This document shows, piece after piece, positions 13,164 to 43,437 of a stretch of 47,949 nt of DNA. A program made the translations under genes and the position numbers. Location of the stretch: NCBI GenBank assembly GCA_903882905.1, contig CAIRYW010000021.1, forward strand, positions 1 to 47,949. Reading direction: 5' to 3'. Below the pieces are notes generated by a model. The model was given only the letters and a program-made list of their open reading frames with translations, searched no databases and was not told the DNA's origin. The number at the start of each line of letters is the position of its first letter. Position 1 is the first letter of the stretch. This stretch comes from an uncultured bacterium (GTDB taxonomy: Bacteria > Patescibacteriota > Minisyncoccia > Phycocordibacterales > CAIRYW01).

Positions 13164-13209
13164 ATAAATTTGAAGTTTATAAAGTAAAAATAGCCCTCTA
13201 ATCTGTAAG

Positions 13210-13243
13210 CTGTGGATAAAGTGCCATAGGTCGGTCCTTGGGG
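13210..13243 (+). repeat. REP-like element copy A
   Basis: ctgtggataaagtgccataggtcggtccttgggg. Confidence 0.85.
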
Positions 13244-14834: not shown

Positions 14835-14874
14835 ACCCAGCACATTCTTTTTGAATAAAAAGAATGTGCTGGGT
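14835..14874. repeat. Perfect 18-bp palindrome, copy 1
   Basis: acccagcacattcttttt-gaat-aaaaagaatgtgctgggt. Confidence 0.95.
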
Positions 14875-15523: not shown

Positions 15524-15560
15524 ACCTGTGGATAAACTACCCAAGGACCGTCCTTGGGTA
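15524..15560 (+). repeat. REP-like element copy B (rearranged core)
   Basis: acctgtggataaactacccaaggaccgtccttgggta directly after a terminator. Confidence 0.8.
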
Positions 15561-20511: not shown

Positions 20512-20551
20512 ACCCAGCACATTCTTTTTATATAAAAAGAATGTGCTGGGT
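20512..20551. repeat. Perfect 18-bp palindrome, copy 2
   Basis: acccagcacattcttttt-atat-aaaaagaatgtgctgggt. Confidence 0.95.
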
Positions 20552-21372: not shown

Positions 21373-21417
21373 TATTTAAAGGACCGACCTTAAATCTTCA
21401 AAAAGATCGGCCTTTTG
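21373..21417 (+). terminator. Hairpin terminator; palindromic repeat family 2, copy 2
   Basis: aggaccgaccttaaatcttcaaaaagatcggccttttgctttt. Confidence 0.6.
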
Positions 21418-21501: not shown

Positions 21502-21897
21502 TTTCCCTAAAATTATATGGCTAAGGCTGTTTCATTGACTTTTAGCTTAAAAACGGTTAATATATATGCGTGGTTTACGTCTCTGTTTAGGAGGTTTTCC
21601 ACATATCAAAGTTGATATGCTTGTACTAAGGTAATATAATTTCAAGCAAGGAAAACTTATCGTTTTCCTCGTTACCGTAAAGACTCAAGATATCGACCGA
21701 AAAGCCACGAACTTTGACAACAAAATAGCCCATATTTCCTATCCCTTCGCTGTCAGTTTAACGAAAGAAATTCAGTCCAAATTATGTCAACTAAACTGTA
21801 TTTAAGTCGAAACAAAAATACAGGGTAGTTATAAAAGTGTTTCAATAGTGTTTAGATTTTGTGAAATAAAATTCGCAAAATTTAAATGCTTGAAAGC

Positions 21898-21933
21898 GTA
21901 GAAAATTTTTTAAGGAATTAAAAAATTTTCTAC
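21898..21933 (+). promoter_or_regulatory. Perfect 14-bp hairpin in the long region upstream of the S-layer-like gene
   Basis: gtagaaaatttttt-aaggaatt-aaaaaattttctac. Confidence 0.5.
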
Positions 21934-27088: not shown

Positions 27089-27124
27089 CCCAAGGACCGA
27101 CCTATGGTACTTTATCCACAGGTA
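27089..27124 (-). repeat. REP-like element copy C
   Basis: cccaaggaccgacctatggtactttatccacaggta. Confidence 0.85.
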
Positions 27125-27240: not shown

Positions 27241-27276
27241 ACCCAAGGACCGACCTATGGTACTTTATCCACAGGT
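27241..27276 (-). repeat. REP-like element copy D, upstream flank of the RAYT gene
   Basis: acccaaggaccgacctatggtactttatccacaggt. Confidence 0.9.
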
Positions 27277-27305: not shown

Positions 27306-27983
27306 ATGCAAAGATCGGAAACTTTTTGTGTAGGAGAGTATTATCACATCTATAATCGAGGTGTTGATAAAAGAATAATTTTCAACACTGAGCAAGATAA
27401 AAAACGTTTTCAACGTTGTTTGTATTTTTGCAATGGAGAAGAAAATGTAATATATGACGACGTTAAAAAACAAGCTCTTTTTAGAATTGATAAGGGAAAT
27501 GATTTGGTTTCTATTGGTGCGTATTGTTTAATGGATAATCACTTCCATATTCTTGTTAGAGAAAACGTCGAAGAAGGTATCTCAAAATTTATGAAAAAAT
27601 TGATGACTTCTTATTCAATGTATTTTAATAAATTGAATAATAGGACGGGTTGCCTTTTTGAAAACAGATTTAAATCAAAACACGTCGACAACGACAGATA
27701 CTTGAAATATTTATTTGCATATATACATTTAAATCCTGCAAAATTGATTGACAAGGATTGGAAAAATAATATTCAGAATAAAGAAAAAATTTTCCAACAT
27801 TTAAACAATTATAAGTACTCAAGTTTTTTTGATTATCAAGATAATTTAAGAGAACTAGGTGTGATTCTTACAAAGAAACATTTCCCGGAATATTTTTTCA
27901 GTAAAAAAGAACATCAAGATTTTATTCTGGATTGGTTGGATGTTCGTCCTGAAGAAGGGTGGGGTGTGGATAAACTACCATAG
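27306..27983 (+). CDS. REP-associated tyrosine transposase (Y1_Tnp / RAYT)
   Basis: GEYYHIYNRGVDKRIIF, YCLMDNHFHILVRE (HUH-type HFH), NRTGCLFENRFKSKHVDNDRYLKYLFAYIHLNPAK. Confidence 0.92.
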   Translation: MQRSETFCVGEYYHIYNRGVDKRIIFNTEQDKKRFQRCLYFCNGEENVIYDDVKKQALFRIDKGNDLVSIGAYCLMDNHFHILVRENVEEGISKFMKKLMTSYSMYFNKLNNRTGCLFENRFKSKHVDNDRYLKYLFAYIHLNPAKLIDKDWKNNIQNKEKIFQHLNNYKYSSFFDYQDNLRELGVILTKKHFPEYFFSKKEHQDFILDWLDVRPEEGWGVDKLP

Positions 27984-28009
27984 GTCGGTCCTTGGGTAGT
28001 TTATCAACA
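27965..28009 (+). repeat. REP-like element copy E, overlapping the RAYT 3' end
   Basis: tgtggataaactacc-ataggtcggtcctt-gggtagtttatcaaca; long hairpin. Confidence 0.9.
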
Positions 28010-32965: not shown

Positions 32966-32986
32966 AAAATATCAGTAGCAGAATAT

Positions 32987-33032
32987 ACCTGTGGATAAGC
33001 ACCTATAGGTCGGTCCTTGGGTTATCCACAGG
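32987..33032 (+). repeat. REP-like element copy F (two perfect inverted DnaA-box 9-mers)
   Basis: acctgtggataagcacctataggtcggtccttgggttatccacagg. Confidence 0.9.
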
Positions 33033-34446: not shown

Positions 34447-34479
34447 GTGAATACCTGTGGATGACTTTATTTTGAAGTG

Positions 34480-34513
34480 CTGTGGATAAACACCTATAGG
34501 TCGGTCCTTGGGT
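34480..34513 (+). repeat. REP-like element copy G
   Basis: ctgtggataaacacctataggtcggtccttgggt; half-copy acctgtggatgac just upstream (about 34453). Confidence 0.85.
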
Positions 34514-37197: not shown

Positions 37198-37254
37198 ACC
37201 TGTGGATAAACACCTATAGGTCGGTCCTTGGGGTTTGAGGTCCTTGGGGTTTGA
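37198..37254 (+). repeat. REP-like element copy H plus 16-bp tandem duplication
   Basis: acctgtggataaacacctataggtcggtccttgggg; ggtccttggggtttga x2 (37223-37238, 37239-37254). Confidence 0.88.
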
Positions 37255-38731: not shown

Positions 38732-38766
38732 ACCTGTGGATAAAGTGCCATAGGTCGGTCCTTGGG
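38732..38766 (+). repeat. REP-like element copy I
   Basis: acctgtggataaagtgccataggtcggtccttggg directly after a terminator. Confidence 0.88.

Positions 38767-40202: not shown

Positions 40203-43437
<3,235 letters not shown>

What the first reader, a model, noticed from the sequence alone, without database searches (positions are those of the whole stretch)
32987..33032. Each REP-like copy carries a perfect DnaA-box 9-mer (TTATCCACA)
TGTGGATAA/TTATCCACA is the strict DnaA-box consensus and occurs in all 9 repeat copies. Copy F has two in inverted arrangement forming its outer stem. Chance expectation for a given 9-mer on both strands of 48 kb is under one. The repeat could act as a dispersed DnaA titration or regulatory array (datA-like in concept) spread by a transposase, or the match could be incidental to the RAYT recognition sequence.
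Basis: partly seen in the sequence, partly recalled or inferred. Interest (0 to 1): 0.72.

Follow-up and report, generated by a model that had tools for sequence, protein, structure and literature searches.

The report
DnaA-box-tagged mobile DNA repeats
Small mobile repeats scattered through this tiny bacterial genome each carry a perfect copy of the nine-letter site bound by the replication-starting protein DnaA, and the same tag recurs beside related but different transposase genes in many other genomes of the same order, which suggests that these elements use the host's replication machinery.

Summary
The window holds 10 perfect TGTGGATAA/TTATCCACA sites (0.47 expected), all in the 9 copies of one REP-like repeat. 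Genome-wide, 26 of 27 copies keep the 9-mer intact while a 3-nt linker beside it varies; the roughly 7 boxes outside repeats are what chance gives.

The repeat flanks a RAYT-type Y1 (HuH) transposase gene (27306-27983). The main new result is that the box is not a quirk of this genome. In the 250-nt flanks of 129 homologous transposase genes of the same order (about 45-55% identity), TGTGGATAA is the commonest of all 9-mers (26 of 129 loci, reversed control 0; 14.5-fold over more distant flank). It usually lies just 5' of a hairpin whose sequence differs between elements. On the transposase tree the tag is polyphyletic, and untagged relatives show no other shared tag. A box plus AAGGnnnnnCCTT pattern gives 72 matches in 31 of 397 order genomes (control 2), but essentially none elsewhere in the phylum.

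Best reading (inference): the box is a module of the element that recruits DnaA for replication-coupled mobility. Recognition of the tag by the transposase itself is the main rival. Titration is possible but unsupported. Binding by DnaA is untested.

The parts
13209..13242 (+). REP copy 1; box 13211-13219
15525..15558 (+). REP copy 2; box 15527-15535; perfect palindromic core CCCAAGGACCGTCCTTGGG
   Evidence: z -4.2
27089..27122 (-). REP copy 3; box 27112-27120; upstream of the transposase gene
27242..27275 (-). REP copy 4; box 27265-27273; immediately upstream of the transposase gene
27306..27983 (+). RAYT-type Y1 (HuH) transposase, 225 aa; its last codons (GVDKLP) are supplied by REP copy 5
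   Evidence: PF01797, 38.4 bits, cut-off 23; NF047646 REP_Tyr_transpos, 39.2 bits, below its cut-off of 80; HuH and Tyr motifs invariant among 28 homologues
27963..28009 (+). REP copy 5; box 27965-27973; near-complete inverted repeat with a degenerate second box (TTATCAACA, 28001-28009)
   Evidence: z -6.1
32986..33032 (+). REP copy 6 (the finding); double-foot copy with boxes at 32990-32998 and 33022-33030 forming the outer stem
   Evidence: z -4.5
34479..34512 (+). REP copy 7; box 34481-34489
37199..37232 (+). REP copy 8; box 37201-37209, just after a terminator-like hairpin
38733..38766 (+). REP copy 9; box 38735-38743, just after a terminator-like hairpin

Best explanation
These are RAYT-associated REP-like elements with two parts: a high-affinity DnaA box, then a short linker, then a small hairpin with an AAGGnnnnnCCTT-type core. 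Shown: the two-part structure, its conservation, its link to the transposase gene, and its recurrence across the order. Inferred: the transposase recognises the hairpin on single-stranded DNA, while the box recruits the host initiator DnaA. DnaA bound there would help mobility by bringing the element to freshly opened or newly replicated DNA, or, in copies with the box inside a stem, by loading helicase and primase so that a single-stranded intermediate is made double-stranded. Host effects (titration, regulation) would be secondary.
For: Box intact in 26 of 27 copies while the adjacent linker varies. TGTGGATAA is the commonest 9-mer, found without prior choice, in flanks of 129 homologous transposase genes; reversed control 0; 36 sites in 63.9 kb near against 3 in 77.3 kb farther out. 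It usually sits 0-6 nt from a hairpin foot, with hairpins that differ between elements. The tag is polyphyletic on the transposase tree: 18 changes, at least 7 forced by well-supported branches. Untagged loci share only hairpin cores, no alternative tag. A second multi-copy family (genome G163) has a perfect box, a freely varying 7-8 nt spacer, then AAGGACSGTCCTT. 72 genome-wide pattern matches against 2 for the control. One order genome (G301) has a dnaA-dnaN origin region with 7 perfect TTATCCACA boxes, and the window's own DnaA keeps the recognition signature. Precedents: the Tn5 ends carry a DnaA site (PMC3347997); a DnaA-box hairpin on ssDNA loads DnaB (PMC6127211); one RAYT subclass carries a DnaA-like C-terminal domain proposed to target the fork (PMC6006769).
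Against: No binding data. About 78% of homologous loci (102 of 130) lack the box, so it is not essential for the family. The box lies close to the hairpin foot, roughly where the guide tetranucleotide lies in canonical REPs, and conservation in other genomes extends to CTGTGGATAACT, slightly beyond the 9-mer; both would also fit recognition by the transposase. The exact 9-mer dominates although DnaA tolerates TTWTNCACA; one-mismatch variants are rare. The window genome's own dnaA region has only one perfect consensus box (TTTTCCACA, 4495 of L110) and degenerate ones. Single-foot copies leave the box single-stranded when extruded, and DnaA binds double-stranded boxes (own knowledge).
Confidence: 0.5

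Rival explanations
1. The transposase itself reads TGTGGATAAC as its 5' guide or tag, the role GT[AG]G plays in canonical REPs. The identity with the DnaA box is incidental or a relic.
For: The tag usually lies 0-6 nt from the hairpin foot, near the guide position; it contains GTGG; conservation extends to CTGTGGATAACT; double-foot copies mirror 'double foot' REPs described in PMC6006769; CT is the known cleavage dinucleotide (PMC8266576) and often follows the box.
Against: Most homologous transposases, including sister sequences of tagged ones, have hairpins without this tag and without a substitute; no transposase residue clearly tracks the tag in independent pairs (low power, 7 pairs); a guide is 4 nt at 0-2 nt from the foot, whereas this tag is 9-12 nt at variable spacing; coincidence of the most conserved 9-mer with the canonical DnaA box has low prior odds.
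Confidence: 0.3
2. Dispersed DnaA titration or regulation: the host retains the repeats because they hold DnaA on the chromosome (datA-like in concept) or adjust neighbouring genes.
For: About 30 of the genome's 37 perfect boxes are in these repeats; several copies lie just after terminators or at gene ends; chromosomal titration is documented in E. coli (PMC12371093).
Against: Copies cluster round the transposase gene; only one copy was found on the dnaA contig; 31 of 397 order genomes carry the box-plus-core pattern at all, mostly at 1-2 copies; no datA/DARS-like cluster of boxes.
Confidence: 0.1
3. Target-site effect: the element inserts next to pre-existing DnaA boxes or origin-like sites, so the box is host flank and not part of the element.
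For: IS200/IS605 elements have a conserved target tetranucleotide flanking their left end (PMC6006769); here the box is 5' of the hairpin.
Against: 27 copies would need 27 pre-existing boxes where about 7 are expected; conservation includes CC before the box and its spacing to the core is fixed within families; double-foot copies carry the box on both arms.
Confidence: 0.07
4. Chance or compositional bias, or a coding artefact (GTG GAT AA = Val-Asp-Lys/Asn).
For: TGTGGATAA exceeds its reversed pattern in most order genomes, including sites that look coding.
Against: Shuffles, the reversed-pattern controls, and the near versus far comparison within the same loci.
Confidence: 0.02

Closest known systems
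REP / REPIN / BIME elements with RAYT (TnpA-REP) transposases
   Same: Short dispersed, mostly intergenic palindromic units round a Y1 HuH transposase gene; each transposase has its own hairpin; inverted and double-foot copies
   Different: No GT[AG]G tag at the hairpin foot; a 9-nt DnaA box occupies that side; own transposase scores below the NCBIfam REP_Tyr_transpos cut-off; single-foot hairpins are weak
RAYT subclass 2.1 (TIRYT) with Bac_DnaA_C domain (PMC6006769)
   Same: Links a Y1 transposase to DnaA-type DNA recognition and replication
   Different: There the protein carries the DnaA-like domain and its repeats do not resemble DnaA boxes; here the DNA carries the box and the protein shows only PF01797
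Tn5/IS50 outside and mosaic ends with a DnaA site (PMC3347997)
   Same: A host DnaA site built into the end of a mobile element
   Different: Tn5 moves as double-stranded DNA by another transposase type (own knowledge); one site at the transposase binding end
ABC-primosome A-site hairpin (DnaA box in a hairpin on ssDNA; PMC6127211)
   Same: Palindromic copies such as 32986-33032 place a DnaA box in the stem of an extruded hairpin
   Different: Most copies here have the box outside the stem; no helicase loading tested
datA, DARS and chromosomal DnaA titration sites
   Same: DnaA boxes away from oriC
   Different: Single dispersed boxes tied to a mobile element, not a fixed cluster

Membership tests
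REP/RAYT system | Multi-copy short palindromic repeats, mostly intergenic | tested here: met
   27 copies genome-wide; window copies lie between ORFs or overlap a gene end
REP/RAYT system | Copies flank a Y1 HuH transposase gene | tested here: met
   Copies at 27089-27122, 27242-27275 and 27963-28009 flank 27306-27983; PF01797 above cut-off
REP/RAYT system | Transposase meets the curated REP_Tyr_transpos model | tested here: inconclusive
   NF047646 matches at 6e-10 but at 39.2 bits against a cut-off of 80
REP/RAYT system (canonical) | GT[AG]G guide 0-2 nt 5' of the hairpin foot | tested here: not met
   Linker is A-CAC, A-GTG, A-GTA or A-CTA; no GT[AG]G at the foot. GTGG occurs only inside the box, farther out
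REP/RAYT system | Transposase binds and cleaves its own repeat as ssDNA | not testable with these tools
   Needs a biochemical assay
DnaA box | Match to TTWTNCACA | tested here: met
   TTATCCACA exactly; consensus as given in PMC12371093
DnaA box | Native DnaA has a conserved domain IV | tested here: met
   L110 4478-5923; GGRDHTTV and PRQ aligned to 1j1v and 8btg
DnaA box | Bound by DnaA | not testable with these tools
   No binding data
datA/DARS | Fixed intergenic cluster of several DnaA boxes | tested here: not met
   Boxes are single or paired per copy and dispersed
ABC-primosome A site | DnaA box within a double-stranded stem of an ssDNA hairpin | tested here: inconclusive
   Met in double-foot copies, not in single-foot copies

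The most novel reading that the evidence does not exclude
Mobile REP elements of this order have repeatedly acquired a DnaA-box foot so that DnaA loads the replication machinery at, or opens, the element during single-strand transposition: replication-coupled mobility through a DNA site rather than through a protein domain.
Probability: 0.25. Interest if true: 0.8.

Novelty: new variant of a known kind. Interest (0 to 1): 0.6.

Why it matters
How REP sequences spread is poorly understood, and the link between RAYT transposition and replication rests largely on analogy with IS608 and ISDra2. A REP class with a built-in DnaA site gives a simple prediction that can be tested with a few oligonucleotides and two purified proteins. 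If true, it would show that an element can couple itself to the host replication initiator through its DNA, and that DnaA sites are being scattered through small genomes by mobile elements, which bears on initiation control.

Tried and rejected
Chance: rejected by shuffles, reversed patterns and the near/far comparison. Same repeat in near relatives: none of 59 other order genomes has it within 2 mismatches. Second PF08299 proteins as RAYT-DnaA_C fusions: the four inspected show no obvious Y1 transposase (by eye). oriC flank consensus as a yardstick: 28 clustered boxes at dnaA loci show only a mild AGTTATCCACA preference, so it does not separate the hypotheses. Orientation against replication: 7 of 7 G384 copies lie on the strand with negative GC skew, but the window's single copies lie mostly on the strand with positive skew, so no rule. 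Transposase residues tracking the tag: none clear, low power. High-count genomes without a close RAYT (G094, G181, G301): the boxes inspected there are oriC, promoter-proximal or apparently coding, not this element. Own RAYT has no match among phage families and none in solved structures at E up to 1.

Full report
Observation. The window has 10 exact TTATCCACA/TGTGGATAA sites where 0.47 are expected and no shuffle reaches 10. All lie in nine copies of one repeat, consensus CC-TGTGGATAA-A-nnn-CC(A/T)AT-AGGTCGGTCCTTGGG. The flagged copy (32987-33032) has a box on each arm and folds strongly as a single DNA strand. Across the 746-kb genome there are 37 boxes, 8 for the reversed pattern; seven lie outside repeats, about what chance predicts. 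Of 27 copies found with up to two mismatches allowed anywhere, 26 keep the 9-mer. In the positional table the box is conserved, positions 10-12 just after it vary, and conservation fades within two bases upstream of the box.

Surroundings. The ORF at 27306-27983 is a Y1 HuH transposase (PF01797 above cut-off; REP_Tyr_transpos below cut-off), with copies on both sides; the 3' copy supplies its last codons, GVDKLP. Copies are denser than average round this gene: 9 of 27 in 6.4% of the genome. Copies 8 and 9 follow terminator-like hairpins.

Beyond this genome. A search of 397 genomes of the order found homologues in 229. I read the flanks of 129 homologous genes. Counting all 9-mers without choosing one beforehand, TGTGGATAA is the commonest (26 of 129 loci; reversed pattern 0). 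Density within 250 nt of the gene is 14.5 times that farther out in the same loci (36 in 63.9 kb against 3 in 77.3 kb). The box usually precedes a hairpin by 0-6 nt, and hairpins differ between elements. On a tree of 130 transposases the tag needs 18 changes, at least 7 of them forced by starred branches; so it has been gained or lost many times, and the tree cannot say which. Untagged loci share only hairpin cores such as AGGACCGTCCT, with no replacement tag.

Genome-wide, TGTGGATAA-N(2-20)-AAGGNNNNNCCTT matches 72 times in 31 of 397 order genomes, against 2 for the reversed pattern, with multi-copy sets in G163 (22), G384 (7) and G016 (7). In a draw of 383 genomes from the phylum, only one genome outside the order has a match. 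In G163 the box and the core are constant while the 7-8 nt between them vary freely, as expected of two separate recognition modules. That set was partly found through the box, so its box conservation is not independent evidence.

DnaA. The native DnaA (G000:C9, L110 4478-5923) aligns with E. coli domain IV (1j1v) and with the full-length protein 8btg, with PRQ and GGRDHTTV intact. One order genome, G301, has seven perfect TTATCCACA sites at the dnaA-dnaN junction, which fits use of this 9-mer as an origin box within the order. The window genome's own dnaA region has one perfect consensus box and several degenerate ones.

Mechanism. Shown: a two-part element, tied to a transposase, whose DnaA-box part is conserved and recurs on divergent relatives. 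Inferred: DnaA recruitment. Three precedents make it reasonable: Tn5 ends hold a DnaA site; a DnaA box in a hairpin on ssDNA loads DnaB through DnaA; a RAYT subclass carries a DnaA-like domain that its authors suggest targets the replication fork. The strongest rival is that the transposase reads the tag: it lies near the guide position, and conservation runs slightly beyond the 9-mer. The facultative, polyphyletic distribution and the variable spacing argue against that but do not settle it. Titration stays possible as a by-product.

Relation to known kinds. It works like a REP-RAYT system, but the canonical GT[AG]G foot was tested and not found, so I file it as a variant and not as a canonical member. 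In the papers I could search I found no report of DnaA-box-tagged REPs; subscription literature was not covered.

Noticed in passing
window about 21376-21416 (-); also G000 C4:92252-92294, C4:29733-29775, C27:1264-1363, C8:8493, C19:55337, C27:61029-61071, C28:37827: A second repeat type with the same AAGGACCG(A/T)CCTT-like core, arranged as two nearby cores (TTTGAAGATTT spacer in several), without any DnaA box.
   Followed up: partly
L245, L254, L263, L272 (genome G301): TTATCCACA lies 22 nt upstream of a TATACT -10-like hexamer at four separate loci, as if DnaA boxes sit near promoter position -40 in that genome (read by eye).
   Followed up: no
G000:C10:36620 (L111 1621) and G046:C2:24221 (L295): A similar non-repeat stretch, TGTGGATAACTCTGT..ACATGTGTA, with two DnaA-box-like sites in two families; in G000 it lies upstream of a NUDIX-like gene.
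   Followed up: no
window 14835-14874 and 20512-20551: Two 95% identical 40-nt palindromes, ACCCAGCACATTCTTTTT..AAAAAGAATGTGCTGGGT.
   Followed up: no
window 40215-43435: The 23S rRNA gene spans 3221 nt against a 2925-position model, so it carries about 300 nt of extra sequence; no 16S rRNA was reported in the window.
   Followed up: no
G000:C4 end (172186-172204) and C23 end (21886-21904): Two contigs end in a head-to-head box pair, TTATCCACA-n-TGTGGATAA, that is, in an inverted pair of repeats; probably assembly breaks at repeats.
   Followed up: no
G000 C19:68724 and C22:1555 (L005, L011): Two copies with an internal deletion that fuses the left foot to the right foot (..AGGTCGGTCACAGGTATTTTTC..) and with shared downstream sequence, so a larger duplicated unit.
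   Followed up: no
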